Of a stretch of 64,000 nt of DNA, positions 701-29,049 are shown in pieces. A program made the translations under genes and the position numbers. Source of the DNA: Phytoseiulus persimilis (taxonomy: Eukaryota > Arthropoda > Arachnida > Mesostigmata > Phytoseiidae); the NCBI GenBank assembly GCA_037576195.1, contig CM075102.1, positions 13,326,745-13,390,744 of the forward strand, written 5' to 3'. A model generated the notes under the pieces. It had not been told where the DNA came from, made no database searches, and saw only the letters and a program-made list of their open reading frames with translations. Position 1 is the stretch's first letter. Each line of letters starts with the position of its first letter.

Positions 701-2190
701 ATATCTGGAGGGGTGATTCTGAGAACAATAAGGCCACTACTTCCCAACTCTGGAGGGGTGATTCCGAGACAAATCTGGCCATTAGTTTCCAACTCTGGAG
801 GGTTGATTACGAGACAAATCTGGCCATTACTTTCCAACTCTGGAGGGGTGATTACGAGACCAATCTGGACATTACTTTCCAACTCTGGAGAGGTGATTCC
901 GGTGCCAATCTGGCCATTACTTTCCAACTTTAGGGGGGTGATTCCGAGACCAATCCGGCCATTACTTTCCAACTCTGGAGGGGTGATTCCGAGACCAATC
1001 TGGACATTACTTTCCAACATTAGAGGGATGATTCCGAGACCAATCTGGCCATTACTTTCCAACTCTGGAGGAGTGATTCCGGGACCAATCTGGCCATTAC
1101 TTCCCAACTCTGGAGGGGTGATTCCGGGACCAATCTGGCCATTACTTTCCAACTCTGAAGGGGTGATTCCGGGACCAATCTGGCCATTACTTTCCAACTC
1201 TGGAGGGGTGATTCCGAGACCAATCTGGCCATTACTTTACAACTCTGGAGGGGTGATTCCGAGACCAATCTGGCCATTACTTTCCAACATTAGAGGGGTG
1301 ATTCCGAGACCTATAAGGCCATTACTTACCAACTCTGGAGGGTTGATTCCGAGACCAATCTGGCCATTACTTTCCAACTCTGGAGGGGTGATTCTGAGAC
1401 CAATCTGGCCATCACTTTCCAACTCTGGAGAGGTGATTCTGAGACCAATCTGGCCATCACTTTCCAACTCTGGAGGGGTGATTCCGGTATCAATCTGGCC
1501 ATTAGTTTCCAACTCTGGAGGGGTGATTCCGGTACCAATCTGGCCATTAGTTTCCAACTCTGGAGGGGTGATTCCGGTATCAATCTGGCCATTAGTTTCC
1601 AACTCTGGAGGGGTGATTCCGGTATCAATCTGGCCATTAGTTTCCAACTCTGGAGGGGTGATTCCGGTGCCAATCTGGCCATTAGTTTCCAACTCTGGAG
1701 GGGTGATTCCGGTATCAATCTGGCCATTAGTTTCCAACTCTGGAGGGGTGATTCCGGTACCAATCTGGCCATTACTTTCCAACTCTGGAGGGGGGATTCT
1801 GAGACCAATCTGGCCATTACTTTCCAACTCTGGAGGGGTGATTCCGGTATCAATCTGGCCATTAGTTTCCAACTCTGGAGGGGTGATTCCGGTACCAATC
1901 TGGCCATTACTTTCCAACTCTGGAGGGGGGATTCTGAGACCAATCTGGCCATTACTTTCCAACTCTGGAGGGGTGATTCCGAGACCAATCTGGCCATTGG
2001 TTTTCAACTCTGGAGGGGTGATTCCGGTGCCAATCTGGCCATTAGTTTCCAACTCTGGAGGGGTGATTCCGGTACCAATCTGGCCATTACTTTCCAACTC
2101 TGGAGGGGTGATTCTGAGACCAATCTGGCCATTACTTTCCAACTCTGGAGGGGTGATTCTGAGACCAATCTGGCCATTACTCTCCTACTC
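701..2190. repeat. 45-bp minisatellite, about 33 units
   Basis: The unit is 45 bp, built around TGGAGGGGTGATTCC, CAATCTGGCCATTA and TTTCCAACTC. Register is exact: the TGGAGGGG core recurs every 45 bases (for example 1561, 1606, 1651, 1696, 1741). Unit variants differ mainly after GATTCC (GGTATC, GGTACC, GAGACC) and in ATTAG/ATTAC, and these variants recur in blocks. That indicates repeated local amplification. Because 45 is divisible by 3, the array stays open in several frames on both strands (for example 695-2233 on plus, 1237-2142 on minus). The resulting 15-residue 'proteins' are by-products of the period and are not called as genes. The array ends in a run of about 14 G at 2191-2205. Confidence 0.95.
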
Positions 2191-2205
2191 TGGGGGGGGG
2201 GGGGG

Positions 2206-2520
2206 GAAGGGCTTGATTCCAGGACCAATCTGACAATACTTTTCTGAGTCCGGAGGGGTGCTTCCTAGACGAATCTGACCATACTTTCCAAAACCTGGAG
2301 GGGTGATTCCGTCTCCAATCTGAACATTACTTTCCGAGTTTGGAGGAGTGATACCGGGACCAATCTGAACATACTTTTCCAAGTCTGGAGGGGTGATCCC
2401 GAGACCAATTTGACTATCACTTTTCAAGTCTGGAGGGGTGATCCCGAGAAATGTCTAACCACACTTTTCAAAACCTGGAGGGGTGATTCCGGGACCAATC
2501 TGACCATACTTCTCGAAACC
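2206..2520. repeat. Degenerate tail of the 45-bp minisatellite
   Basis: About seven further units continue the same 45-bp motif (CTGGAGGGGTGATTCC, ACCAATCTGA, ATACTTTTC), with far more substitutions than the main array and CTGACCATAC in place of CTGGCCATTA. They probably represent older edge units that escaped later homogenisation. Beyond 2520 the period is lost. Confidence 0.85.
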
Positions 2521-6517: not shown

Positions 6518-8388
6518 GTGAAATCCAATGGAGTTACGAGTTGCGTGCACCCGGTCGAAACGGAGGATATGTGCGCCTCATGCGGAGCCGAATCAGAACC
6601 GTAAGTACTTCTGAGCCTTACTGACTTCATTTGATGGTGTATCGGATTTTCCTGAAACCCATTTGTCTCCTTCTCGGCAGACAAGATCCCGATTCTGCCG
6701 AGGTCGCAGCTTCTGTTTCGTTGGCCTACCAACGACCGGAGGTGCGAGTCAGCAGAGCACTGGCTCGCTCCGTCGGAAAGGTTGGTTGAGATAGATTCTC
6801 CGCCGATACTCGGCGTGTTGCGAGACTCATGAGTCGAGGAGATCGATATGAGTCCCAAATTGATATCCAAGGTCATTCCAGGAAGAAAAGTTGCGGTTGT
6901 TGGCACAGAGGAAGATGGTCCTCCTAATCGATCTGGACCAGACCCTCATACACACGACGGACAGGCTCGTGAGCAACAAAATCGAGGGCGTTCACCGCTT
7001 CCTTCTGCCCGGCGATGATTACTGCCTTCACACTCGAATCCGCCCGGGAACCGAAACCTTCCTGGAAAACGTGAGTTGCTCACTGCGGGGCCTGGTTTTG
7101 AATCCACAGATTCCTCGTCGGGATGTTTGGCAGTCGATCGCTCATCACGTGGGAAGAGAACGAAGTCATTCTAAGCTTCAAACCCTTCCAGGTCTCCCAG
7201 CTCTTCGAGCTACACGTAGTCACGTTCGGGGACCGTTCATACGCGGACAAGATAGTTTCGTTGCTCGATCCAACGAAGAAGTATTTCCAGTCTCGCGTTC
7301 TGTCTCGCGATGAAAGTTTAGACCAAACATCCAAGGCTGCAAACCTCGGGAACTTGTTCCCCGCTGGCGATGAAATGGTCTGTATCATCGATGATCGCGA
7401 AGATGTTTGGGAATACGCATCGAATCTCGTGGCGATGAAGCCATACGTCTTCTTCCGCGGAGCTGGGGATATCAATGCGCCTTCAACAGTCCTCGCGGAG
7501 TGTCATGCGATGCCTGCGAGCGAAGGAGGGTTCTGCAGTGCCGCTCTATCCCCCGAGAATCCTGAGGCCCTCCTCGCTGATCAGGATATAGTCGCATGCT
7601 TGGAGACCCTCATCGAGGTCACATCCGTGGAGGCTGACGGCGTCATCGACTTCCATGACAGTGATGATCATCTCACCCACCTCGAGAGGACTCTGCGGAA
7701 GGTGGGTGCTAAAGACTAAGTCTCAATCTGTATTTTGTGATCGCTGTCGGGTCGCGGGAAATATCGACGATGCATAGGGATTTCAGAATGACATTGCTTT
7801 CGCAGATTCACCGGGCGTACTTCAAGCGGTATGAGCGGAGGAGGAGCAAAAAGCCTGAGAGATCGGCTCCGATGTCCGGACTCCCCAATTCAAGGAAAGT
7901 CATTCCGCGTGTGCGGAGGAAAACCCTGAAGGGAGTGGTCGTCGTCTTCAGCGGCTGTTTTCCGATCAACCAGAGCCCGGAAAGCGTGAAAATCTGCTCT
8001 GTGGCTGCTGCGCTTTGCGCAGAAGTCCAGAACAAGATCACCCCGGCGACAACTCATCTCGTCGCGGCTCGGCCGGGCACAGCGAAGGTCTTCCAGGCTC
8101 GAGAGCTCGGAACAGTCGAGGTAGGCTCTCGGGGGGATGAAACCCGATTCACGATCAGTTCCACCTTTCACCAAGCTTGTTGATGACCTCGATCTCGGTT
8201 TGCAGGTGGTCTCGCCGCAATGGCTGTGGTCGTGCGCCGAACGATGGCAGAGGATGCCGGAGGCGTTGTTCCCGGTTGCGGATTTCTTCCCGTTCCTCGG
8301 TGTGGCGCAGTTCAGGGTACCTCCGCTCGATGTTGATGAACAGCGGGGGAATAATGGACCTCCGATGAAGAAGTCAAAGCGCGCCTGA
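6518..8388 (+). CDS. Fcp1: RNA polymerase II CTD phosphatase FCP1 (six exons, 5' end missing)
   Basis: FCP1 dephosphorylates Ser2/Ser5 of the Pol II C-terminal repeat and recycles polymerase in the nucleus. Exons: 6518-6600, 6681-6780, 6882-7070, 7192-7701, 7806-8120, 8206-8388. All introns are GT-AG, 80-121 bp, and phases join to 459 codons plus TGA. The first exon encodes the family's Cys segment (SCVHPVETEDMCASCGAE). Residues 62-124 carry the catalytic DxDxT motif (LIDLDQTLIHTT, both Asp present). Exon 4 has the second acidic motif IIDDREDVW and GAGDINAP of the FCPH domain. A BRCT domain spans about residues 333-435 across exons 5-6 (VVVVFSGCFP, THLVAA, WLWSCAERW). The protein stops about 25 residues after the BRCT fold, so the long acidic tail of fly and human FCP1 is absent. 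The start codon is not found. Confidence 0.93.
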
Positions 8389-9926
8389 GATGACGACCAA
8401 TGAGTGTCGTGATGTTTTCTCCGCAACTGACGCACAGCGGGAGGGAGAGATCAGGTACAGCAGAATCCATCTCACTGTTCCTCGTCGCTCTGACCGTAAG
8501 AATCCCAGCTTCAAGTCAAACGCACCTGTCATACATGTTATTCATCTCGTAACCCAGCATTGATATACTGGAAGCAAACAAAGATTTCGGATATTCAAAA
8601 TGGATTGGAAAATTGGAACGGTGCAATCTTTCCCCTATGAGAAAGCATTTTCGGCGTCACCGCCGGAGTTTATTCATGAGAGAATACGGACGAGGCTCCA
8701 CCCTACAGCGATCAGTCCGTGGCTCGTGTCCTTGGGGTACGTCTCGTGCAAGGTCGACTTCTGCGAGAGGCTTGCCAGCTCGCAATTCTCGCAGAATGGA
8801 GCGCGGAAAGGGAATCGCGAGAAGCCATGTTCCGCCGCTGCTAGAAACCGAAGGGCTCGAATATGATCTGACTGCGGGACCTGTCGTAAGATCCGCGGGA
8901 ACTAGGCGGAAAAGTCGGCAAAGACCGATCCAGCAAGGCCGGCGAGAGTTGCGTCGTCTACGAAGCAGGGCTCAAACGTTGAACAGAGAGTCGATGCGAA
9001 TCGGCTGGAAGCGATGCGAGAAACTGTGGAGCCACAGGGTTCACCCTGCTGAACCCTATTCCGCGAGGAGGCGACTCCGTTGTCCCGGAATAGCTCCGAG
9101 GGGCGACCTGTACTTCTGGTGGATTATGGGAAAGAGGGCAAGGAAGTTGGCTTGGACAGTGCTGGGGATCCGTTTTTCTCGGAGGGAGTTGAAAGCGTTG
9201 GCGGAGCTTCACGAAATCGCCAACTTGGCAGCAATGCAGATGTTGGGCCCCGTTGCCTTCCAGGTACCTGCCCCAGGGCCCAGAGCCTTCGGCGCGGCTG
9301 ATTTCGTTCGAGTCGCATCCGAATCCGTGGATTGATTCGCACGATCAACGGCATAGTCTCGAAAGAAATTCAACAGCGACGATTTCAATCGATTTCATGA
9401 GGCAAAATGAAGTCACTGAGCTGCTCTATGTGGAATTCCAGCCATGTTGAATTCTACCTCAATTCACCCTTTTGGACTCCTTCAGCTTTTGAACTGCACC
9501 ATATTGTTTCCATCGGCTTATACTAAGCCAAGGTCACTGATTTTATTGAATTCCTCTAAAACCATTTCATCACTCGTATTCAACACCGATAGCCGCGATA
9601 ACTTCTGCGTTCGGAACCCGACTTCTCGTTATTCCCATTTCATAGCGTAGAGCGTAACATAGGTTTTGTGGGGCGGCCTCATCCCAGCTCCCAACCTCAG
9701 ATCGAATTTTCCCCCGCAAAACCTCGCGGACCCGTTCCGAAAATACTGGGGGATCTTTGGAAGGCCTACTCCCACGAGATGATTGCTCTATCACAGTGAG
9801 TCATCGAAGGTGAACGCAAAGTTTCGCATCGCAGAACCGCTTCTTTTTTGCCCCCACAGACTCTTGAATCGAGCACCTTGATGGGTGATAGCTATAGTTT
9901 GTAGCCACTCCCTCTTTGTATTTCCC
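8389..9926. other. Fcp1 3' flank and unassigned open frames
   Basis: No canonical AATAAA was seen in the first 200 bp past the Fcp1 stop. A 240-codon plus frame (8613-9335) covers much of the stretch. It is very Arg-rich, has no recognised domain, and overlaps another open plus frame (8600-8866) and minus frames. It could be an unrecognised single-exon gene, an eroded element or chance. I do not call it a gene. Confidence 0.3.
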
Positions 9927-10095
9927 AGCCATCGCCCAGATAGATAACCAAAAACACACCCTGGGACAAGGGTCCCCCGGACGAGCTGCCGAAGAAGACT
10001 TGGATACCGGTGCTTGAGCCGCGGAGATAAGAGAAAGACTTGGGAGCGAACAGAATAAACTCTCTCTTCTCTTAAAAAAAAAGCCATCGCCCAGA
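9927..10095 (+). pseudogene. 5'-truncated processed retrocopy with 14-bp target-site duplication
   Basis: The insert (9941-10081) is bracketed by perfect direct copies of AGCCATCGCCCAGA at 9927-9940 and 10082-10095. It ends in a nine-A tail, has AATAAA at 10054-10059 (15 nt before the tail), and 28 codons of an open frame (9944-10027) ending PDELPKKTWIPVLEPRR followed by TAA. It therefore looks like the last codons plus a ~43-nt 3' UTR of a spliced, polyadenylated mRNA copied by a LINE machinery. The parent gene is not recognised and is not in the window. The short 3' UTR would fit a housekeeping gene. Confidence 0.8.
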
Positions 10096-10289
10096 GTTGG
10101 CAATAATGGCGAGCCCACGTCGCTCTGTTTCCTCGCGTATCTCGGAATATAGGATTTTTATCCTGATCCGAACCTCCACCGCTCTATCTCTCAAAACTAC
10201 CGGTTTCCAATATTGATTCCTTGACCCCATTCAATAGTTTTCCCGTTTCAGTTCATGGAATCTATTTGGAAGCTCCAAGCCGTTGCAGA

Positions 10290-10900
10290 CTCAGACTCAT
10301 CTGGGTGCTGGCACTTGGCTTCCGTCTCGCGGAATCGAGTCTCGAGAAACTCGACTCGCGCGACACATAACTCTTGATAGGTGGTACTCCGCGTATTTAC
10401 TCCGCGCATCTGCTCCTGGAGCTACATCAAAGCAGGATCCCCCTATCTTTCAGCCACTCCATTTCCACAAGTTCGTTGCTCCTCGTCGTTGAGCGGAGCT
10501 GCTCCCGGAGTCTCCGTTCCTCTCCCTGCAGGGCTGATCGCTTCTGATCGTCGGCGATGTGTTTCCTCAGTTTTTTTCCCGCGCAACCAACACGAAGACG
10601 CGACCGGGGGCGTCCAGAAATCGTCTCTCCCTCGTGATCGTCGGTTCCTCGAGCTCCTTACATCAGCGGCCAGAACCTGTCAGCCAGGATTTCTGCCTCG
10701 GTTTCTAACAGTCCATAATCTTCCCAAAGCTCCAGCTTCGACGCCAGGCATGACTTATCCGACATATTTCCTCGCATCTCTCTTCCGCTCAAGATTTGTC
10801 GCCGTATGAGATGAGGAAGCGATCCCGGGTGCTGACGTGTGCGTGTACAATCTACGCTCTCTGCGTGGGTCGTTGAGATGTGAGACGCTCTCCGCGATCG
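10290..10900 (-). pseudogene. Coiled-coil gene family, copy A (broken)
   Basis: On minus, starting near the ATG at 10777, this matches the coiled-coil gene at 15616-16200. Shared parts are the N-terminal segment (KLELWEDYGLLETEAEILADRFWPLM), the GCA/Lys-Arg segment and the end of the coiled coil. It has an in-frame TAA just after WPLM, shared with copy B, several length changes, and it lacks about 50 bp coding for the QLRFFQTRAETTW part. It is a decayed paralogue. No 5' exon like those of B, C and D was found next to it. Confidence 0.75.
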
Positions 10901-11863
10901 TATAGGGATTCGGCCATCTGCTTCAATGAATCTGTTCTTCAGACAGCCCTTCCAATGGATTGGCTACACTGGATTATGTCTCAAAATATAGCTCTGCCGT
11001 GCTCCCGCGTATCTGCGATGTCCGCCTGAACTCAAGATATCTGACAAGATCGCGTCTTCTTTGCATTTTGGCCCTTAACTCCTCGGGGAAGCCGATTTCG
11101 GAAAATTCTTCGATTGCGAAAAGTTCTTGGATTGTTCTGGACTACCCGACCAGGGAGTTGTCGGGTCGATCCGAGAAATTTTTCCCCCCCGAAAATCCCG
11201 CCTCTTCATAGCACAATCGTTAAATCATCATACCCATCGATGATTCACGGAGTTGGTTCAGTCCCTCCATCGAATTTTGAGTGGGAAACGGAGTCACGGA
11301 TTTGACGTTTGGAACAGAAGTTGCCGCTACATTTGTTCACGAGGGACCTTTAGAGCGAACTTTTCCGTTTCCAAGCGCTGTGTTTATCTTGGGGAATTTC
11401 GCCAAAGGCGCTGGTAGCCGCTTTTGAAGTTCGAAAACCGCACCCTGATCTTCTAGGAGAAGGAATTATCGACACGGGTCTGGGCCTTCGCGGATTGGGG
11501 TTCTTGTTCAGAATTCATACCGCTAGCTATTGAGCCAGATCATGGGGAACAGGGATCAGCTTGGTAGCCCCCTATTTCCAAGGCGAGACCGCCGGAGAAT
11601 GAGGGATCCTTCATCACAAGTAGAACGAAGCAATCGACATAGGAATCGTTGTTTATACGAAATTGAGATCTGAAGCGCTCTCACAGAGCACCGGTAAAAG
11701 TTCGAGGAAGAACCCTATGACTCATCTATATCGCATTCTCATGTCCTGGCCACAAAGCTGACGGTGCAAATCCCTAACGCAAACCTCATCCTCGAGAGCC
11801 ATTCAGGTGAGCAAAGTTACGCATAATAACGCATAAGCTACCAGAACATTCGTAAAACTCCGG

Positions 11864-12073
11864 TTATCGATGGCCAAGATGTCTGAAGCCAAAGTGACCG
11901 GCCCCAGTCGTGATCATGTGCATCAGCCTCATTTGACGAAAAGTCAGCTGAAAACCCCGAATTGGGAGTAAAGGGACGGCCAGAGGTACTCTTCTGAGTA
12001 AGTTATCGTTTGCTTTCTCGTCATCCAATTCCTCCTGCCGCTCCTCCTCGAGATTCTTCAATTCCGTGGACAT
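11864..12073 (-). other. 69-codon open frame, left-arm member of a mirrored pair
   Basis: The frame begins MSTELKNLEEERQEELDDEK and ends FGFRHLGHR. Its partner in the right arm (16704-16913) has the same length and starts MSAELKNLEEERQEELDDEK. Differences between the two are about as often replacement as silent, so there is no clear sign of purifying selection. It lies downstream of copy B in the same orientation and could be a second small gene of the unit or an incidental frame. Confidence 0.35.
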
Positions 12074-12558
12074 CGGAGAATGTCGTAGTCAGCTGCACCG
12101 CACTTTCTTCGAAAGAGCATCCTCGTCATCCGTTTCCCTGAAAGCAGCCCGATTTCCGAGCGATTCGGGAGATTATTCCGTGGCTCTTTGAAGCTCGGCT
12201 CATGCGGTCGGGCAGGGAATTCTCTTGGTTCCTCAGCTGGGCATAGGAGTTCCCCACTGAAAACATGACCGCCATCGAAATTTGGTTTGTGAGTTAGTTA
12301 CTGAACACTCGAGTACCGTTGGTCGGCGGTCGCAGTAACGACAGGCCAGAGTCGATCAAGCAGAGCAATATACTAATAGGAGAAAAACTGGCAATGGAAG
12401 GGGCTCGAAGCCGTGCCTCCAGAAAAGATGCAGTTCGAGTTGGGAAATCTCCAAGACCTTTATTGAGGAGTACTTCGAAGGACTCAGGAAGGCGGGTCGA
12501 GACCGAACGACCGATAGCAGTCATCGGTACCCGTTTTCAATCGGCACATTCGATTGGG

Positions 12559-13143
12559 AGGACATACAGCTCATGATATGTGGTGCTCCGCGAAACCACT
12601 TCGCGCATCTGCTCGTGGAGCTCATAGATCCGTCGAAGTAGATCCTCTCTCTCTGTCAGCCACTCCATTTCTTCCGTCCAAGTTGTTTCGGCTCGGGTTT
12701 GGAAGAACCGAAGTTGAACTTCCAGGAGCTCGTTGCTGAGCGTTGTTGAGCGAAGCTGCTCCTGGAGTCTTCTTGTCTCCTCCTGCAGGGCCTCCAATCG
12801 CTCCTCGGCGTCAGGCTTTTCATCGAGGATGCGTTCCCTCAGTTTTTTCCCGGCGCAACCAACACAGATTCGCCACCGGGGGTGTCCGGGAATCGTCTCA
12901 TCCTCGCGATCGTCGGTTCCTCGAGCTCCTTACATCAGCGGCCAGAACCTGTCAGCCAGGATTTCTGCCTTGATGTCTGACCGTTTGTAAATTTCCTCCA
13001 GCTCCATTCTCAACGAGCAGTATGACTCATCCGGCATATATCCTGAACGGTTTCTTTATTGCTCGAACTGGAGCGATCTTGGGCGCGGATATCTGCGTCA
13101 ACGATGTACGCTCTCGACGTGAGCCGCTGAGATTCGAGGGACT
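12559..13143 (-). pseudogene. Coiled-coil gene family, copy B (broken)
   Basis: This is nearly identical to copy C over the coiled coil (EALQEETRRLQEQL through HEQMREVVSRSTTYHELYV). The first ATG of C is lost; the second (13037 on minus, MPDESYCSLRMELEE) remains. A TAA replaces the Glu codon after WPLM, and a ~105-bp deletion after ELYV removes the end of the coiled coil. The upstream intron is preserved (GTAAGT donor at 13614-13609, TTCAG acceptor ending 13144). Copy A shares the TAA, so A and B may share ancestry after that change. Confidence 0.8.
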
Positions 13144-13757
13144 CTGAAGAAATACGGAGTTGAGTTAGATTCTCCTACCCGCTAGGTCGTAAAATCATGC
13201 GATGCATGATGAAACGACTGCAGAGTGGTACGTTAGCAGTTTAGCCCTCCCAGGAATGAGAGTTAGAGATTGAGCAGAACACCGCACGCGAGCAAAAATG
13301 GAAGGATTGTTAGTCGCATCTTCGGAGCGGGAGAATCCCGCCCAAGTTGAGCATCCTGAGCAGAAATAGCGAAGAGCGGATGGGTTTCCAAGCTAACCTC
13401 GAGGCGAAAGCAATGCACGCTTCACCAGCGGCGGCGGCCAAGCTCGGAATCTTACTTTGGATGCAGAGGGACCATGAGGGGGACTTCAATCAGTCAAGGA
13501 TCTCTGCATGGTTGACTCTTCATGATCACCACGATCCCTTTTTCGAATCGAAAGGGGAGTTCAAATTTCTTCCACAGTCTCACGGATTCGTTTGACTCGG
13601 AGTTCAGAACTTACTTGGGGCTGGATGGAGAGTTCGGTTCACCAGGTCTGATCCACGCTGAATGATGGCGCGTAAGTTGAGAAGCACACGCCAACGTGAA
13701 AATGGGAGAGGGAATCTCTGTCATATTCTCGGGGGAGGAGTATGAAGTCTGCGGTTT

Positions 13758-14904
13758 CATCACGCTCCTCAACCATACGAAATGCACCAAGTTTCAAGCA
13801 AAAAATGAGCTTTACTTGTGGGTCCGATTCCGGGCAGATCAGGGTGCAGCGACACAAGATACTGTTTCCTGCACGGTCTCGCGGCGGGCGGTTCGAAATG
13901 CCCCCAGCGTTAGATCCATTTTAACAGCCCAGAGAAGTCGAATATACGATTGAAAGCCCGGGGTGGTGAGAACTGACCCCACCAGGATATCAGCGAAGCG
14001 TGTGGGAACCGACCACATCCCACGACTCTCGAATTGTTGATGCGTCTTAAGATATTGTAGAACGAACTGCATTGAGATGTTCATCCTGGTCGGAGGCGCT
14101 GCTTCGATCTTTTAAAACAATTTCAGAACGGCTCGGAAGTTAGAGTGGAGAGTCTTATCAACTACTGTCTTCCAAGCGACATCCTTGTGGTTCACTCTGA
14201 AGACAGGCTAGATCGTAAAGAGAGCATTGCAGTTAGAAAGCTCTGTTACATGCCATGACTCAGTGGCGTAGCGACCCTCGGTGCTGCCCGGGGCGGACCC
14301 TCAGTCTGATGCCCCTCATGGCAAAGTATCCGATGCCAAGTCCGCCACCGGGTCTATGGAAGTTTCGGGACGAGAGGTTGGATTTGGCGAATGCCGTCGC
14401 CGGATTTGAGAAGGACGTCGCGATGCTCAGGCTGGGCGAGACGCTGCCCCAGGCCTAAGACCTTGATGCCCGGGCGGACCGCCTCCTCCGCCTTCCCTCA
14501 CTGCGCTGGTGCCATGACTCGGTTGTACTCTAATCAAGCCTGGTCTGAGCGAGCGACACCGTCGGAATTGATTGCTTACGACTCCACCGTCCTCCGTCTG
14601 CCTGAGGCACAGGCGCTGACAGACTTTGTTGCTGAGATGGGGAGACTTCGAGAGCGCGCTTGAGGGTGGAAATCAGGGAACCGGCCGCCCTGCGCAAAAT
14701 CTGCGACGCGGTCGGTGGGAGGTTATTTGCCGCTGTCGGCGAGGCCGGGTATCTCCCCGGACCCGCGGCTGGTGAAGACATTTACTCTGCAGATGACGAA
14801 ATCATCAAGAGCGCACGGTTATAACCTGATCTGGGGTATTGTTGATGCGATGGGGACGCTCGTCGGAATGCAGAGTCCATCGGGGAACTCTGTAGGAATG
14901 GGCG
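13758..14904. other. Spacer between the inverted arms
   Basis: About 1.15 kb with no match between its two halves that I can see. No recognisable gene; open frames (14391-14663 on plus, 14530-14781 on minus) are short and overlap in opposite frames. The stretch 14280-14800 is more GC-rich than its surroundings. Confidence 0.6.
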
Positions 14905-15050
14905 AACCTCAGACTTCACACTCCTCCCCCGAAAATAAAACAGAGATTCCCTCTCCGGTTCACTCTCCGGTTGGCGTATGCTTCTCAAGCCATGCGGCTT
15001 CATTTGGCGTTGATCAGACCTGGTGAACCGAACTCTTCATTCAGCCCCAA

Positions 15051-15500
15051 GTAAGTTCTGGACTCCAAGTCCAACGAATCCGTGAGCCTGTGGAAGAGCC
15101 CCCTTTCGATTCAAATAAGGAGTCAACTATGCAGAGATCCTTGGATGATTGAAGTCCCTCGCATGGTCCCTCTGCATCCAAAGTAGGATTCCGTGCACGC
15201 GCCGGCCCCGCTGGTCAAGCATCCGGTGCTCTTGCCTCGAGGTTATACCGGGAGCCTTCTTTTTCTACTCTTCGCTACTTCTCATCAGGGAGCTCAACTC
15301 AGGCGGGATTCTCCCACTCACGAGATGCGACTAGCAATCCTTGCATTTTCGCTCGCGTGCGATGGTCTGCTAAATCTTCAACTCTTACTCCTAGGAGGGC
15401 TGAACTGCTAACGTACCACTCTGCAGTCGTTTCATCATGCATCGCATGATTTTACGACCTAGCGGCTAGAAGAATCTAACTTAACTTCGTATTTTTTCAG
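15051..15500 (+). other. Predicted 5'-UTR intron of coiled-coil copy C
   Basis: The donor CAA|GTAAGT at 15051 and the acceptor ATTTTTTCAG ending at 15500 would splice a leader exon to the exon carrying the ATG at 15616/15628. The same donor and acceptor lie at equivalent places in copy B (13614 to 13144, minus) and copy D (18043 to 18391, plus). Conservation of both sites in three diverged copies supports a real transcription unit. Upstream, all three share GATTCCCTCTCC about 100 bp before the donor, preceded by an A/T-rich TATA-like stretch (AAAATAAAA, GAATATGAC, AAATATAAG). Confidence 0.5.
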
Positions 15501-15615
15501 AATCCCTCTAATCTCAGCGGCTCACGTCAAGAGCGTACATCGTATACGCACACGTCCGCAACCCGAGATCGCTCCTTCATCCTGTACAGCGATAAGTCTC
15601 CACTGAGAAAGAGAC

Positions 15616-16302
15616 ATGTCAGGAAATATGTCGAATGAGTCATACTGGGCGTTGAAGCTGGAGCTTGAGGAAATCTACGGACTGTCAGACACCAAGGCAG
15701 AAATCCTGGCTGACAGGTTCTGGTCGCTGATGGAAGGAGCGCGAGGAAACGACGATCGCGAGGATGAGACGATTACCGGACGCCCCCGGTGGCGTATCTG
15801 TGTTGGTTGCGCCGGGAGGAAACTGAGGAGACGCATCCCCGATGAGAAGCCTGACGCCGAGAAGCGATTGGAGGCCCTGCAGGAGGAGACAAGAAGACTC
15901 CAGGAGCAGCTCCGCTCAACAACGCTGAGCAACGAGCTCCTGGAAGTTCAACTTCGGTTCTTCCAAACCCGAGCCGAAACAACTTGGACGGAAGAAATGG
16001 AGTGGCTGAAAGAGAGGGAGGATCTACTTCGACGGATCTATGAGCTCCACGAGCAGATGCGCGAAGTGGTTTCGCGGAGCACCACATATCATGAGCTGTA
16101 TGTCGCGCGAGTCGAGTTCCTTGAGACTCGACTCCGCGTCAAAGAAGCCGAGGAGGGGACCCCGGCTGATCAGCATTCTCACTCTCCAGATCCAGAGTGC
16201 TCCTCCCTCCGAATGTGCCGATTGAAAACGGCTACCGATGACTGCTATCGGCCGTTCGGTCCCGACCCGCCCTCCGGAATCCCTCGAAGTACTCCTCGAT
16301 AA
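15616..16302 (+). CDS. Unrecognised coiled-coil protein, copy C (the intact copy)
   Basis: The protein has 228 residues and no family that I recognise. Residues 1-60 form a likely helical N-terminal segment (YWALKLELEEIYGL, AEILADRFWSLMEG), then comes a short basic stretch with a CxxC pair (RICVGCAGRKLRRR, Cys62/Cys65). Residues about 81-185 are a long Leu/Glu/Arg-rich coiled coil, probably oligomeric. The tail 186-228 is unlike the rest: copy D ends at the equivalent of ADR-stop, so the ancestral protein was likely about 187 residues and copy C reads through into downstream sequence. The start may be Met1 or Met5; Met5 is the one kept in copies A and B. It lies in the right arm of the inverted duplication behind a predicted 5'-UTR intron. 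It is either the functional member or the least decayed one. Confidence 0.55.
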   Translation: MSGNMSNESYWALKLELEEIYGLSDTKAEILADRFWSLMEGARGNDDREDETITGRPRWRICVGCAGRKLRRRIPDEKPDAEKRLEALQEETRRLQEQLRSTTLSNELLEVQLRFFQTRAETTWTEEMEWLKEREDLLRRIYELHEQMREVVSRSTTYHELYVARVEFLETRLRVKEAEEGTPADQHSHSPDPECSSLRMCRLKTATDDCYRPFGPDPPSGIPRSTPR

Positions 16303-16470
16303 ATGTCTTGGTGATTTCCGAACTCGATCTGCATCTTCCCTGGAGGCACGGCTTCGAGCCCCTTCGATTGCCAGTTTTTTCCCTATTAGTATATTGCTCT
16401 GCTTGATCGACTCTGGCCTGTATTTCCTGCGACCGCCGACAACCGGGATTCGAGTGTTCAGTAGCTAACT
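16290..16470 (-). repeat. Antisense segment shared with the left arm and with 19.44-19.68 kb
   Basis: On minus this matches 12330-12520 (plus, left arm) and the region left of the LINE fragment. Shared blocks are GAAAA(A)CTGGCA...GGGGCTCGAAG and TTTATTGAGGAGTACTT (TTTATCGAGGAGTACTT here). In the 19.4-kb copy the two blocks are separated by about 100 bp more. The same opposite-facing order (coiled-coil gene, then this segment) occurs in units B, C and D, so the segment belongs to the duplicated unit. Confidence 0.55.
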
Positions 16471-16703
16471 CACATACACGTTTCGCGGCTTCCGAATTTC
16501 GATGGCGGTCATGTTTTCAGTGGGGAACTCCTATTTCCAGCTGAGGAACCAAGAGAATTCCCTGCCCGACCGCATGAGCCGAGCTTCAAAGAGCCACGGA
16601 ATAATCTCCCGAATCGCTCGGAAATCGGGCTGCTTTCAGGGAAACGGATGACGAGGATGCTCTTTCGAAGAAAGTGCGGTGCAGCTGACTACGACATTCT
16701 CCG

Positions 16704-16913
16704 ATGTCCGCGGAATTGAAGAATCTCGAGGAGGAGCGGCAGGAGGAATTGGATGACGAGAAAGCAAACGATAACTTACTCAGAAGAGTACCTTTGGCTG
16801 TCCCTTCACTCCCAATTCAGGGATCCCAGCCGAATTTTCGTCAAATGAGGCTTATGCACTTGATCACGACTGGAGCCGGTAACTTTGGCTTCAGACATTT
16901 TGGACATCGATAA
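16704..16913 (+). other. 69-codon open frame, right-arm member of a mirrored pair
   Basis: Same length and about 85% identical residues to the frame at 11864-12073. It begins MSAELKNLEEERQEELDDEK, a charged possibly helical start. No domain is recognised and no promoter is evident. It follows copy C by about 400 bp in the same direction. Confidence 0.35.
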
Positions 16914-17929
16914 CCGGAGTTTTACGAATGTTTTGGTAGCTTATGCGTTATTATGCGTAACTTTGCTCACCTGAATGGCTCTCGAGGATGAGGTTTGCGT
17001 TAGGGATTTGCACCGTCAGCTTTGTGGCCAGGACATGAGAATGCGATAAAGATGAGTCATGGGGTTCTTCCTCGAACTTTCACCGGTGCTCTGTGAGAGC
17101 GCTTCAGATCTCAAGAGCAGCCAAGAATAAACGATAATTCCGATTTCGTATAAATAAAGATTCCCAAGTCGATGGCTTCGGTTTACTTCTAACGAAGGAT
17201 CTCTCATTCTCCGGTGGTCTCGCCTTGGGAAGAGGGGGCTACCCAGCTGATCCCTGCTCCCCGTGTTCTGGCTCAATAGCTAGCGGTATGAATTCTGAAC
17301 ACGAACCCGAATCCGCGAGGGCTCAGACGCGTGTTGATGATTCCTTCTCCTGGAGAATAAAGATACGGCTTCCCAGCTTAGAAACCGGCTCCCAACGCCC
17401 CCGGATGCCACGGAGACCCGGGGTTCGAGTCCTGCTCACAACTTGAAGAGTTTGAACACAGATCCCCCAGACCCTTTCACAAATTTACGAAGCTAGCCTC
17501 ATGAGTTCCGCGGATTACGAGCCTTCAGCTGGGGAATTCTCCTGCTGGTCATGCTACTGACATGTGAACCTTTTCCTTGACTTGGGAGGGATGCGGCCGT
17601 CGGAGGCGACCAATTTGTCCAGCCGGATGGGAGGCCTTATGTGGCGCATCTCGGCAAATCTTTCTCTAGTCAGCAGGAACGAATTCCCTTTGTGGGAAAA
17701 AGAAGTTTTCGCGAATATTTGACCCCTCCCGTTCACTTGGGACCACAGTCATTCGCTCTCATTCACAATGGCTCTTTGAACCTTCATTACCGAGCGTAAA
17801 CTCGATGTCGCCGTATCTCGAGAACCGCTGGACGCACAGCGTCGAAAGACATCTTCCCAAAGAGAGTATCCTCACGGGCTATCATTTCCCACAGTCTGTG
17901 ATGACATCGCATGACTTCCAAAGCATGAA

Positions 17930-19020
17930 AAATATAAGTGTGATTCCCTCTCCGCGCGCTCGTTGGCGAATGTTCCTCAACCTATTAGACATCACTCAGG
18001 GGCGATCAGAACTGACGAACCGAGCTCCTCTTCCAGCCCCACGTAAGTACTGGACTCTGGGCCCTATGAATCCGTGAGTCTGTGAACGAATTTTGGATAT
18101 TCCTCTTGCTCCATGAAAGGTGTGAAGGTGTCCATAAGATCCACGATACGGTACGATTCGATACGGTCATATTATGGCGGTGAAAAAGCAACCGAACCCT
18201 GGCGACGGGCCTCGATGAGAAGACTGATGGCCGAGAAGACGCCAACTGTCGATACTAATATCCGCTTTTACTTAGTATGGCGCCACTCGCGGCGCAATCG
18301 CCGATGATTGGATTTCTTGGCGTTCAAGATTTCTCAACCGACAACGGACCCTAGCGGATATGGAATCTGACTCAATTCAGGATTTCTTCAGAGTCTCTGT
18401 AATCTCAGCCGCTCGCGTCGAGCTTCCTCATCTTGTACGGCGCGAAATTCTCAGCGAGAGAGAGACATGTCAGGCAAAGTCACACTGGGCGTTGAAGACG
18501 GAGCTGGACGAAATTTATGGACTGTTAAACACCTAGGCAGAAATCTTGGCGGACATGTTTTCGCCGCTGTAGGAGGGCGCGCGAGGAATCGACGTTCGCG
18601 AGGATTAGACGATTCTCGGGCGCCCCTGGTGGCGTTTTTGTGTTGGTTGCGCCGAGAACAGATTGAGAAAACGCATCCCCGACGACAAGTTGGGATGGCG
18701 CTGGGAAGCGATAAGCGGCCTCACAGGAAGAGACAAGAAGACTGCAGGAGCAGCTCCGTTCAACGAGGATGAGAAACGGGCTGCTAGGAGTTCAACTCCG
18801 ATTCTTCCAAACTCGAGCTGAAATCACTTGGTATATGAAAATGGAGTGGCTAAAGGAGAGGGAGAATTGACTCCGACGGATCCATGAGCTCCAGGAGCAG
18901 ATGCGCGAAGTGGTTTCGCGGCGCACCACCTCTAATGAGCTATATGTCGCGCAAGTCGAGTTCCTCAAGAGACTCAACTCCGCGTGAAGGAAGCCGAGGA
19001 GGCGACCCTGGCTGATCGGT
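17930..19020 (+). pseudogene. Coiled-coil gene family, copy D (broken)
   Basis: A third, more diverged unit in the same direction as C. It keeps the leader-exon region (17930-18042, GATTCCCTCTCC), the donor GTAAGT at 18043, the acceptor CTTCAG ending 18391 and most of the body: SHWALKTELDEIYGLLNT, the Val-Gly-Cys-like region and the coiled-coil end up to ATLADR-stop at about 19013. Its ATG at 18467 is out of frame with the body, and several in-frame stops are present. It shows that the family's normal end is shortly after the coiled coil. Its downstream neighbour is the antisense segment and LINE at 19.2 kb and beyond. Confidence 0.75.
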
Positions 19021-19233
19021 AAACTTGCTTTCCTGATCTACGGTACTCTTCCGTCCCTCGACTTGCACTTCGAAACCAAATTCAATTCGAAACCTCCTTC
19101 ATTCAAAGGGGGGGGGAAATGCAAGAGAGCTGTTTACACTGGGGTAGAGGTGCTGTCATCTAGAGGGGGGAGGCATCCAGATAAGGTGGAATAGTTCCCA
19201 TGGTATACGGTTTTCGGCGACCGCTGTGCTGAC

Positions 19234-19689: not shown

Positions 19690-21390
19690 ACCTAGGGCTC
19701 TACTTCAGGGGACCTGCGTTACCATCCTGCGTGTTCGATGTACTTCGTTGTATGGTCGGCGCTTTCTTCAGGTTGCCGCTCGGAGTCTTGCAGGTCGGCT
19801 TCTACCCAGATCTTCTCTCCTGGTGAGTATTCTACCGATGGTTTTGGTGATAATTTTCCAAATTTACTCATTCTCTAGCATATCGTTGACCATCTCCGGG
19901 ATTCCCCTGAAGGCGAGGGTTCCTCGGGCTTGATTGAACGCCTCGAACTTCACTATCGTGTGTTCTACGGAGTCGGGCCCCCCGCGTCGCGGTGGACGCA
20001 GGTTGTTGAGGGTGCCTTACCTATCCTGCACAGGAACTCATGGAAATCCCCATTAGAGGAGAGCACCTGAGTCGTGTGATATGGGCGTAGCCTCAGATGC
20101 CAGAAACTCAGGTGCCAGAATAAAACACTCTCCCGACTCCGGATGGGTCCCCGCTGATTCAGCGGGTTATTGGAGGCCGCGAATGAAGCTAGGCAGAACC
20201 GGGGAGCTCAATGGGGAAAGCTCCAGCTCCGAAGGCTCTAGCACAGACTACCTCTGTCACCCTCCTTGGGCCAACAGGATCAGCTTGAGAACCACCCCGT
20301 ACATGTGATTATTGTCGATCGACGTGGAAAACTCAACGACGGCCTGAATCCTGCACTCTCTCCTTCACCGGCAGTGATGATTCGCTAGCGACGAGTAGAA
20401 CGGAAGGTAGTTCCTCCCCTAACTCCTTGCATTGAGTGAGGAATCGCCGAGCTAGCGGCCCAAAAGCCAAGTTGAGGCCAAGCGAGCTTTCGGCGAAGGG
20501 GGTTGCGACCGCTCGGAATGCGCGAAGGATCGCTTTTCTATTTCCCCGCAGCTCGAGTCCCCGAACGTCCGCGCTGATCGAGATTGGAGACATGCATCGA
20601 ATGTCCCATCCATTCATCATGATTGATTCATTGCCATCATCAGCAAACCATCAATAAATCGCAGGGGGTGCGATGCAGCGTGTACCATACGTACGGTGTG
20701 GTGGAGTGTCTGTCGCATGACTTGGGCTCGTTTCAGACGTCGGAGACGCTTTGCTCCCAAATCCGCTTAATTAGCGGGTATCTATCCGGAATCGAGAGAG
20801 GGTTTCATTCTGGCATCTGAGTTTCTGGCATCTGAGGCAAAACCGTAAGGTCACCGAAGTCCCTCATGATCCACTTTCTGATGTCGATTATGCATTCGTG
20901 TGTCCACCTTCCGCGCCTTCCGGAGTCCCACTCGGACTGCCATTCCGAGAGAGTCTTTCCTTTATTGTCTCATCGTCGACTCTGTTATCCTCATCCTCTG
21001 AGTTGTAGGGCTTGCTTCTCTTCTTGTTTTCTCCCCATAGACGTGATTTTTCTGTCGCATGGAGTCTCCATGGCGGCGTGCTAGTACCATGAGCGCCGCC
21101 GTTGATACTATTCGGTACGCTCGCGTGATTCGTATGGTCGTTCCTCTTTGTGCCCTGTCGATTGCTTCCCCGTTGTGAGCTTCTCTGAGTGCTAGTTTTG
21201 TCCATACTGGTGAGGCGTACAGCATCATTGACTCTGCGACTTTGGCCAGCATGCGTCGTTGTGCTTCCGACGTGCGTGGGAGTATCTTCGCTATATTCGC
21301 GGCTGCCTTCGATGCTCTCAGAGCTGCTGCTTGCGCATGTGCGCCACCTCCGCATCATTCTGCGAAAATTCATTGTTATCAGGAAACTCT
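19690..21390 (-). mobile_element. R1-clade-type LINE, 3' part of ORF2 (degenerate)
   Basis: Read on minus: reverse-transcriptase thumb/connection (RRMLAKVAESMMLYASPVW, ITRAYRTVSTAALMVLARRP), then WQSEWDSGRRGRWTHECI, HTTQVLSSNGDFHEFLCRIG and the C-terminal zinc-knuckle region (VEHTIVKFEAFNQARG, GIPEMVNDMLENE, ILTRRED). These are the C-terminal signatures of R1/LOA-like LINEs. The copy is 5'-truncated, carries frameshifts and stops (for example TAA after MLENE), has lost at least one knuckle Cys and holds a 747-bp insertion. The 5' limit is blurred by a G/C homopolymer near 21440. Not mobile. Confidence 0.8.
20091..20837. mobile_element. 747-bp terminal-inverted-repeat element inserted in the LINE
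   Basis: Both ends carry the same ~80-bp sequence in inverted orientation, beginning CCTCAGATGCCAGAAACTCA, with about 13 mismatches. The terminal ~30 bp is itself a tandem doublet (CTCAGATGCCAGAAA). The LINE frame reads on cleanly across the site (GDLTVL before, LRPYHTTQ after). No target-site duplication is apparent: flanks are GGGCGTAG and CAAAACCG. No transposase is seen; the 95-codon minus frame 20333-20620 has no recognised domain. Non-autonomous DNA-transposon type, superfamily unknown. Confidence 0.75.
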
Positions 21391-24900: not shown

Positions 24901-25600
24901 AGGACCTCGATTCTGGAAGAATTTTATCGTCACGGTCGATCACAAAGTATCTTATCTTGTAGGCTCCTGCACGCTCGGAGACTGTCTGGTCGGAATTCGG
25001 CTCCATGTCCAGCAAATAACCTTCACATGCGCGACACCTTGCTAGCTTTCTTTTCGATCCGTTCTGGTACCGTTCGAGCGGGAGCCGAATAGAGGAAGAT
25101 TAATGATCGTGAATGCCTGCATGAACTAGCATGAGGGTTCTTGTCACCGGAGGGAACAGACTGGTGACATTTTTCGAGCAAACGGGCTCAAAGCAGAATC
25201 CCAAAAACGTTTTAGAGAAATCGTTGCAGAATCCCAACCGAAGTCAAGCTCATCTGGGGTTCATCCCGGTCTTCCGAGGCACACGTGGGTTCGGAGCCTC
25301 TCGGAGCCAATCATAAGACCACATCCAACAAGTTTCACGAACAACAGCTCATCCCGATTCCCAAGGTCAGTCGAGTGCAGAGAGACTCTAAACGGAAGAG
25401 TGTCAGATCAAAACACTACGCTCTGATCTCGGAGCAGCGCAAACGCTTCGTGGATTGCGACAATCGCTTGCGCAGGGCCTCTCAAAGAACCACCAAATGC
25501 CTTGCGGCACCTCCTCTCAGAGGTCCAGTTAGTCCCACAGAAGTCAAGTCAGCTCCAGTTCGCTCTGGAGCTCTAACCCCCAGATTCCTCCAACTCGATG
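21935..25600. other. Region without a recognised gene
   Basis: Nothing conserved was recognised. A minus frame 23281-23517 ends with a protein-like stretch (IPPVGTNLYRFDALHDHVF) that could be a terminal exon, but no partner exons were found. An (AAT)8 microsatellite is at 24877-24899. Confidence 0.5.
24877..24899. repeat. (AAT)n microsatellite
   Basis: Nearly eight perfect AAT units. Confidence 0.95.
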
Positions 25601-25670
25601 TGGGGCCACTTTATTTTTGTCAGTGTTCGGAGTGTCTCCTGTCGGGAGAGTTTTTGACTTGCCGGTCATG

Positions 25671-26867
25671 TGGAAGTTCACGTTGATCCTGGCGTCGGCC
25701 GCAAATGTCGCCTTCTCTGCAGAACTCACGGCAAGGAAAGCTGGTGGCTCCAGCACGTCCATGTTCAACCCGTTCCCTTTCTTGCAAATCGTGCGTTTCG
25801 CCAACGACGAATGCGAGACCGACTCTGGTTCGGCCGGGACATGCTACACCGCCCAGGAATGCGATGACCTGAAAGGTTTCATACAGGGGGATTGCGCGAA
25901 CGGCTACGGTGTTTGCTGCGTGTTAACGTACACCTGCCGCGAGACCATGCGCCACAACGTCTCCTACTTTGTGCCTCCGTCCTATCCCGAGAAAGAGGTG
26001 GAAGCGAACGTTTGCCCCTTAAAAATCGCATTCGAGCCTAAGATTTGTCAAATTCGACTGGACTTCGAACGTTTCGACATCCTGGGGCCAAAAGGTGGAG
26101 ACTGCTTGGATGACTTGTTCGTTGTGATGGGGGCGAACGCAAACCATAAAGTGCCCGTGATATGTGGCCACAACGACAATCAGCACATCTACATCAACGT
26201 CGATACGGTTGAAGGACCTGTGGAGGTGCAGATGATAACCGGCATCACCCCGTTCTCGCGGGACTGGAAGATCAGAGTGTCCATGGTGCCTTGCGATTCT
26301 CCCTTCAGGATACCGAATGGCTGTCTCCAGTACTTCACAGGTGCCTCGGGAAATTTCCGCAGTTTCAACTTCGATCAACGTGACAAAAGTCGGTCTGGCT
26401 ACCTGAATGCCGTAGACTACGCCATGTGTCTCCGACGAGAACGGGATATGTGCTCCGTGACGTATTCTGTCGCACGCGGAACAGAAGATTCGGATATTTC
26501 GGCGAGCCTCAGTGATGACGTGGCTTCGAGCGCGTCAACCACCACACCCAGAGGACTTCGGGAACAATCGTTCATCAAATCTGCTGCGTTTGGCATCGCG
26601 ACATCCAGCGAGAAGTCTCTGGATTACCAGACCGATTCGAAGAGCGCTCCGACTAAATGCACTGGTGATTACTTGGCAATTTTCGGCTTGGAGCGCTTCT
26701 GCGGCGGTGTGTTCGGCCTGACTTCAGGCAGCAGAGAGAGTCAGTCGATCACCCTGAAAGACTCTGGACCTCTGATGGTTCTTTTCAAGACCGACAAAGT
26801 GTTCAATGGTCGCGGTTTCGACATAAATTTCGTCCAGGGACCGTGCATGCCTGTCACCTTTTTCTAG
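25671..26867 (+). CDS. Secreted clip-like / CUB domain protein (paralogue 1)
   Basis: 398 residues, intronless within the coding region. The ATG at 25671 (MWKFTLILASAANVAFSAEL) gives a signal peptide and matches the start of the paralogue; the open frame reaches 25617 but those 18 codons are unlikely to be used. A Cys-rich clip-like module follows (Cys49, 59, 65, 76, 83, 84), then a CUB domain (about 113-212, Cys116, 127, 146, 166; CQIRLDF, DDLFVVMG, VPVICG). A second conserved block (about 218-268, GCLQYFTGASGNFRSFNF, DYAMCLRRERDMCSV), a Ser/Thr linker and a third CUB-like segment (about 333-391, CTGDYLAI, FCGGVFG) complete it. The architecture is that of an arthropod secreted family of unknown biochemical role. 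The neighbour is a tail-to-tail paralogue. Confidence 0.9.
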   Translation, partial: WKFTLILASAANVAFSAELTARKAGGSSTSMFNPFPFLQIVRFANDECETDSGSAGTCYTAQECDDLKGFIQGDCANGYGVCCVLTYTCRETMRHNVSYFVPPSYPEKEVEANVCPLKIAFEPKICQIRLDFERFDILGPKGGDCLDDLFVVMGANANHKVPVICGHNDNQHIYINVDTVEGPVEVQMITGITPFSRDWKIRVSMVPCDSPFRIPNGCLQYFTGASGNFRSFNFDQRDKSRSGYLNAVDYAMCLRRERDMCSVTYSVARGTEDSDISASLSDDVASSASTTTPRGLREQSFIKSAAFGIATSSEKSLDYQTDSKSAPTKCTGDYLAIFGLERFCGGVFGLTSGSRESQSITLKDSGPLMVLFKTDKVFNGRGFDINFVQGPCMPVTFF

Positions 26868-29018: not shown

Positions 29019-29049
29019 GGCGTTGAATAGGTGGAAGAGTCACTTTGCA

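What the first reader, a model, noticed from the sequence alone, without database searches (positions are those of the whole stretch)
10290..19020. Mirrored four-copy array of an undescribed coiled-coil gene
Copies run minus, minus, plus, plus (A, B | C, D) around a 1.15-kb spacer. Only C keeps a long frame; A, B and D are broken. A/B share a premature stop, while B/C share whole arms, so history includes both tandem and inverted duplication. No known family matches the CxxC-plus-coiled-coil protein. This is the best candidate for a new locus type in the window.
Basis: partly seen in the sequence, partly recalled or inferred. Interest (0 to 1): 0.72.

Follow-up and report, generated by a model that had tools for sequence, protein, structure and literature searches.

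The report
Decaying mirrored cluster of orphan gene
A small gene with no other match found in this genome was copied several times within one stretch of a chromosome, partly as a mirror-image pair, and nearly every copy is now broken, so this looks like an ordinary dying local gene family rather than a new kind of locus.

Summary
Four copies lie minus, minus, plus, plus; B and C sit in inverted arms (11407-13756, 14905-17399; 89.7% identical) around a 1.15-kb spacer, and only C keeps a long frame. Arm divergence, and a second, differently rearranged version about 190 kb away, argue against an assembly artefact. It is not a dispersed transposon: 13 of 13 genome-wide matches at E<=0.001 fall in one 194-kb stretch that also holds a tandem array of FCP1-like phosphatase genes. 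I count nine copies or remnants. Deep copies (A, E3a, E3b, E4) continue into a coiled-coil tail that C lacks, so C looks like a truncated derivative. C-specific changes fall evenly over codon positions (5/5/5; 4 synonymous, 8 not), as without selection, and 39-49% of substitution-only neutral simulations keep such a frame open. The CxxC is absent from 3 of 7 aligned copies. A flipped spacer, a 63-nt A/B identity tract and mosaic arm ancestry point to arm recombination and conversion. Best reading: a once-coding orphan gene decaying inside a recombining palindrome. A hairpin-siRNA role or a working C protein is not excluded.

The parts
10287..10777 (-). copy A, broken (stop at codon 40, frame change, internal deletions); continues into the start of the longer tail
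12463..13046 (-). copy B, broken (stop at codon 40 shared with A, first start codon lost, 97-nt deletion relative to C)
15616..16302 (+). copy C, open frame of 228 codons; about codons 1-179 homologous to the whole family, the rest a tail not shared with A, E3a or E4
18477..19073 (+). copy D, broken (several stops and frame changes)
11407..13756 (-). left palindrome arm (contains B)
14905..17399 (+). right palindrome arm (contains C)
13757..14904 (.). palindrome spacer, 1,148 bp; most of it lies in the opposite orientation in the paralogous cluster about 190 kb away
14262..14509. 248-bp dispersed element inserted in the spacer, flanked by an 11-bp direct repeat (14251-14261 / 14510-14520, read); absent from the paralogous spacer
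16671..16870 (+). old piece of a dispersed inverted-repeat element (mirrored at 11907-12106)
6864..8180 (+). nearest member of the linked FCP1-like (NIF + BRCT) tandem array

Best explanation
This is a decaying, locally amplified orphan gene. The ancestor was probably a protein-coding gene for two short helices followed by a long coiled coil, longer than the C frame, near an FCP1-like phosphatase gene. Segmental, tandem and inverted duplications produced about nine copies within 194 kb, and one pair (B|C) forms a palindrome. Recombination between the arms flips the spacer, and gene conversion patches the copies, also spreading broken states such as the A/B stop. Most copies have lost their frame; C's frame is open but shows no sign of current selection. 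Shown here: copy map, confinement to one region, arm divergence, flipped spacer, mosaic ancestry, broken frames, and a tail of C that differs from the deep copies. Inferred: past coding constraint, the direction of the tail change, the recombination mechanism, and lack of present function.
For: All 13 of 13 matches at E<=0.001 lie at C2:13,151,827-13,345,713; at E<=10, 15 of 18, the other three at E 0.5 to 2; with a deep copy as query 12 of 13, the other at E 0.09. A second cluster is collinear with the window outside but has most of the spacer inverted and one arm reduced to about 180 bp. Tree: C' groups with B (95/93), D' with D (80/87). Arm ancestry is a mosaic (chi2 41.4, permutation P 0.0002); A/B 63-nt tract. 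C-specific changes 5/5/5 by codon position, 4 synonymous and 8 nonsynonymous codons, against 26% synonymous expected. A third-position excess appears in deep comparisons (C vs E3a 37/34/60, P 0.002; C vs D 24/28/41, P 0.02) and not in recent ones (C vs B 12/11/12, C vs C' 15/14/17), which fits past rather than present constraint. With substitutions only, the frame stays open in 0.49 of simulations with 15 neutral changes and 0.39 with 20.
Against: C has only 15 lineage-specific changes in the 199 codons compared with B and C', so weak constraint cannot be excluded. NG86 dN/dS is below 1 in 28 of 28 pairs (0.27-0.77), C vs C' 0.45 and C vs B 0.65; past constraint and protein-guided alignment may explain this (inference), but it is not what a purely neutral family would give. 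Several deep pairs show no third-position excess (C vs A P 0.23, C vs D' 0.22, A vs E3a 0.23), so the case for an ancestral gene rests on few branches. No expression data and no related genomes.
Confidence: 0.72

Rival explanations
1. Copy C is a working lineage-specific coiled-coil protein, shortened and given a new tail by the rearrangement, and A, B and D are its dead sisters.
For: Open frame of 228 codons with a start codon shared by C, D', A and D; helix 78-179 predicted with pLDDT 77-95 in blocks of ten from 81 to 180; dN/dS 0.45 against C'.
Against: C-specific changes look neutral, and one falls at a well-kept site (Ser37, where 5 of the other 6 aligned copies have Pro). The tail is low-confidence (pLDDT under 50 at 183-217 and 221-228) and not shared with the deep copies.
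Confidence: 0.12
2. The B|C palindrome is transcribed through as a long hairpin and diced into siRNAs that silence members of this family, as at hpRNA loci of Drosophila.
For: 19 perfect arm-to-arm tracts of 21 nt or more, 1,003 nt in all, longest 173 nt; a second mirrored pair E3a|E3b; hpRNA loci arise as inverted copies of gene pieces, some near their progenitors or in amplified clusters (PMC10317233, passages).
Against: No intact target gene was found in the assembly; 1.15-kb spacer; arms only 89.7% alike; no small-RNA or transcript data. Long inverted repeats pair by construction.
Confidence: 0.1
3. The unit is a transposon or foldback element.
For: The arms hold a 200-bp piece of a dispersed inverted-repeat element (28 of the 32 out-of-region rows) and the spacer a 248-bp dispersed element (51 of 58 rows lie elsewhere, a lower bound as 40 of 143 candidates were scored).
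Against: Those pieces look like passengers: the coding unit has no copies outside the region, and the rest of the arm piece and spacer tested gave only 4 short rows at 69-79% elsewhere. Matches to a transposase were not searched for over the whole arm.
Confidence: 0.04
4. The palindrome is an assembly artefact.
For: Mirror-image joins are a known artefact (recalled, no call).
Against: The arms differ at about 10% of sites with many indels; a related palindrome remnant lies about 190 kb away, though in the same assembly.
Confidence: 0.02

Closest known systems
Gene-bearing palindromes with arm conversion, arm deletion and rebirth (human Y P8/VCY, PMC6790999; abstract and outline seen)
   Same: Multi-copy gene in inverted arms, copy-number turnover, loss of nearly one whole arm in a sister structure, duplication of neighbouring sequence
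   Different: Arms here are about 90% identical (X-palindrome arms exceed 99% by the abstract of PMC8981503, seen in the listing); sex linkage was not tested; nearly all copies are dead
Inverted-repeat arm homogenisation and spacer inversion (template switching, PMC8604942; abstract and introduction read)
   Same: Patchy arm homogenisation plus an inverted spacer
   Different: That paper treats short repeats in yeast genes; here the arms are 2.3-2.5 kb
Drosophila hpRNA loci / Dox-Nmy system (PMC10317233; passages read)
   Same: Inverted copies of gene pieces, some in local clusters with paralogues
   Different: No intact target found and no small-RNA evidence here

Membership tests
Palindromic (ampliconic) gene cluster | inverted gene copies around a spacer | tested here: met
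Palindromic (ampliconic) gene cluster | arm-to-arm gene conversion or recombination | tested here: met
   mosaic ancestry P 0.0002, flipped spacer, A/B tract; inferred from a single assembly
Palindromic (ampliconic) gene cluster | functional gene copies maintained | tested here: not met
   one open frame among nine copies or remnants, without sign of constraint, at low power
hpRNA locus | inverted repeat able to form a long duplex | tested here: met
hpRNA locus | Dicer-dependent small RNAs from a hairpin transcript | not testable with these tools
   no small-RNA or RNA-seq data
hpRNA locus | intact target gene elsewhere | tested here: not met
   within the limits of a six-frame search that can miss genes cut by introns
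Transposon / foldback element | dispersed copies of the unit in the genome | tested here: not met
Known protein domain family (ERM_helical, APG6_N, Striatin as weak hits) | score above the curated Pfam cut-off | tested here: not met
   C: best 21.6 bits against a cut-off of 40. Among the 7 members scanned the best E is 4.9e-5 (ERM_helical, 3 of 7 members); bit scores are shown there for C only

The most novel reading that the evidence does not exclude
The mirrored copies are a lineage-specific RNAi source: a fast-evolving, locally amplified orphan gene (perhaps a selfish or conflict gene) was silenced by hairpin siRNAs made from its own inverted copies (B|C, and E3a|E3b), after which the gene itself decayed and left the suppressor behind.
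Probability: 0.07. Interest if true: 0.65.

Novelty: new member of a known kind. Interest (0 to 1): 0.3.

Why it matters
In one stretch of one genome it shows the likely course of a gene palindrome: duplication near a linked gene array, arm recombination that flips the spacer, conversion that spreads a premature stop, loss of one arm in the sister cluster, and decay of the gene. It also warns that the one long open frame in such a cluster can be a truncated survivor by chance rather than the functional gene.

Tried and rejected
Rejected: high-copy transposon; foldback element; assembly hairpin artefact; membership in the ERM, Apg6 or Striatin families, which are sub-threshold coiled-coil hits; PDB relatives (best E 0.54 and 0.71). 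Led nowhere: Rfam (0 matches at gathering threshold); tRNAs (0); the sigma-70 promoter scan (not suited to a eukaryote); a literature search meant to place the organism (4 papers, none fitting from the listing) and one for FCP1 duplication in mites (1 paper, unrelated from the listing). Searches were used for comparators (10 of 52 and 5 of 7 papers listed). I ran no literature search for this protein itself, which has no name to search by. No fold search was run: the model is a low-confidence single coiled coil (pTM 0.27). That the genome is a phytoseiid mite is a recalled guess from size, GC and four large contigs; no call tests it.

Full report
Where it is. The window is C2:13,326,745-13,390,744 of a 181-Mb, 127-contig eukaryote assembly whose contigs C1 to C4 are 54.7, 52.0, 38.9 and 28.1 Mb long. 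I fetched the 190 kb to its left and analysed both as one 254-kb stretch. Below, 'r' means position in that stretch; window position = r minus 190,000, and C2 position = r plus 13,136,744.

Observation. Four copies are present in the order and orientation claimed. A gapped inverted alignment gives arms 11407-13756 and 14905-17399 and a spacer of 1,148 bp. Identity is 89.7% over 2,327 sites with 239 gap columns. It varies from 0.73 to 1.00 in 100-column windows with at least 70 compared sites, leaving out the windows that run past the outer end of the arm. First-order Markov resampling of the region, 20 times, gave no inverted match above 33.7 bits, against 1574 and 1355.

How many copies, and where. 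The C protein matches 13 places at E<=0.001, 13 of 13 within C2:13,151,827-13,345,713. Raising the cut-off to 10 gives 18 places, 15 of them in that region and three elsewhere at E 0.5 to 2. A deep copy (E3a) as query gives 13 places, 12 in the region and one elsewhere at E 0.09. Grouped by place these are nine copies or remnants: A, B, C, D; C' (r15,030-15,705) and D' (r29,226-29,627); a mirrored pair E3a (r154,781-155,277, minus) and E3b (r155,595-156,036, plus); and E4 (r164,531-164,657 and on, its middle deleted).

Linked genes. Left of the four copies is a tandem array of FCP1-like genes: NIF phosphatase domain (43.3 bits, cut-off 21.8) and BRCT domain (21.6 bits, cut-off 21.3). The NIF query finds five places in the array at 91-100% identity and one elsewhere, on C1, at 66%. 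Four of the five have the BRCT part, one of these with a stop inside. The coiled-coil copies sit before the first unit (E3), between the first and second (E4) and after the fifth (A-D); none was found beside the third and fourth.

A sister cluster with a flipped spacer. At r12,325-13,548 the sequence matches window 8664-9856. About 4 nt on follow about 180 bp of the inner left arm, then most of the spacer in the opposite orientation (with gaps, the largest beyond window 14,630), then a right arm, interrupted by a retroelement-like insertion, then D'. So the outer parts are collinear and the spacer is inverted, and window 9857-13566 (copy A and nearly all of arm B) has no counterpart at that place. 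The sister right arm agrees with B rather than C at its inner end (30 to 12 sites in 14901-15200) and with C further out (22 to 7 in 15201-15350). At its outer end it matches B for 564 bp (r25,637-26,199) but C for only 396. The left piece is slightly nearer C (17 to 13, 11 undecided), which is not decisive. The three possible pairings change along the arm more than chance allows (chi2 41.4, permutation P 0.0002). In the tree, C' joins B (95/93) and D' joins D (80/87); one deep fork is unsupported. This is what inversion by crossing-over between the arms, plus conversion, would leave. It is inferred from one assembly.

Order of events. The insertion in the sister arm has 315-bp terminal direct repeats 97.5% alike, so it seems younger than the 12-15% divergence of the clusters. 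That it is an LTR retroelement is read from its structure; no family library was asked. The window's spacer gained a 248-bp dispersed element, flanked by an 11-bp direct repeat, that the sister spacer lacks.

Is C a gene? (1) The deep copies A, E3a, E3b and E4 continue past about codon 179 with a shared sequence (E3b only its start), with in-frame indels between A and E4 at first and a frame change in A later. C, C' and D share the start of a different tail, and B has a 97-nt deletion there. On a midpoint-rooted tree the longer tail is ancestral (inference). (2) C-specific changes: 5, 5, 5 by codon position, 4 synonymous and 8 nonsynonymous codons, against 26% synonymous expected. (3) Third-position excess on the DNA alignment: present for C against E3a (37/34/60, P 0.002) and D (24/28/41, P 0.02), absent for C against B (12/11/12), C' (15/14/17), A (26/27/32) and D' (43/43/50; this one includes sequence past the end of its homology). 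The comparisons are not independent. NG86 on protein-guided alignments gave 0.27-0.77 for 28 of 28 pairs, which leans towards constraint at some time. (4) Simulated neutral change leaves the frame open in 0.49 of trials after 15 changes and 0.39 after 20; indels were not simulated, so these are upper bounds. Together: probably coding in the past, no evidence of selection on C now, low power.

The protein. No Pfam family passes its cut-off for C; the best E among seven copies is 4.9e-5, for a generic helical domain. There is no PDB relative. AlphaFold on a four-row alignment predicts helices 7-21, 25-41, 66-73 and 78-179 and a low-confidence tail; mean pLDDT 64.7, pTM 0.27. The first Cys of the 'CxxC' is Arg in 3 of 7 copies.

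Known comparators. Palindromes with arm conversion and death by loss of one arm are described for human Y P8 (PMC6790999, abstract and outline); arm homogenisation with spacer inversion in yeast inverted repeats (PMC8604942, abstract and introduction); hairpin-RNA loci made from inverted copies of gene pieces in Drosophila (PMC10317233, passages). The hairpin reading stays open here: 19 perfect arm-to-arm tracts of at least 21 nt total 1,003 nt, but there are no small-RNA data and no intact target was found.

Verdict. The description is accurate, and the two stated refutations (dispersed transposon, artefact) find no support, but the locus is best seen as a decaying member of a known kind.

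Noticed in passing
window 6864-8180 and r162,056-198,180 (C2:13.299-13.335 Mb): Tandem array of five FCP1-like (NIF, BRCT) phosphatase gene copies, 91-100% alike over the NIF query, with a single more distant relative (66%) on C1.
   Followed up: partly
window 25533-26864 (+) and 27687-29039 (-): A second mirrored pair: two long ORFs in opposite orientation, each matching the CUB domain, about 70% alike over 1.09 kb of DNA.
   Followed up: no
window 704-2511: 45-bp minisatellite (also read as a 135-bp period); related arrays lie elsewhere in the fetched 190 kb and next to a dispersed inverted-repeat element on C1 (L045).
   Followed up: no
L041-L047: Dispersed element of about 1.63 kb with about 200-bp terminal inverted repeats, copies roughly 82-92% alike; a piece of its end lies in both palindrome arms.
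   Followed up: partly
r16,420-25,637 (L018-L019): Retroelement-like insertion with 315-bp terminal direct repeats (97.5% alike) in the sister palindrome arm; described only.
   Followed up: partly
r91,393-117,690: Large segmental repeats about 96% alike whose ORFs look by eye like a protein kinase; not tested against a family library.
   Followed up: no
window 20090-20168 and 20760-20838: Short inverted pair (79 nt, 86%) just outside the cluster, containing 15-bp tandem units.
   Followed up: no
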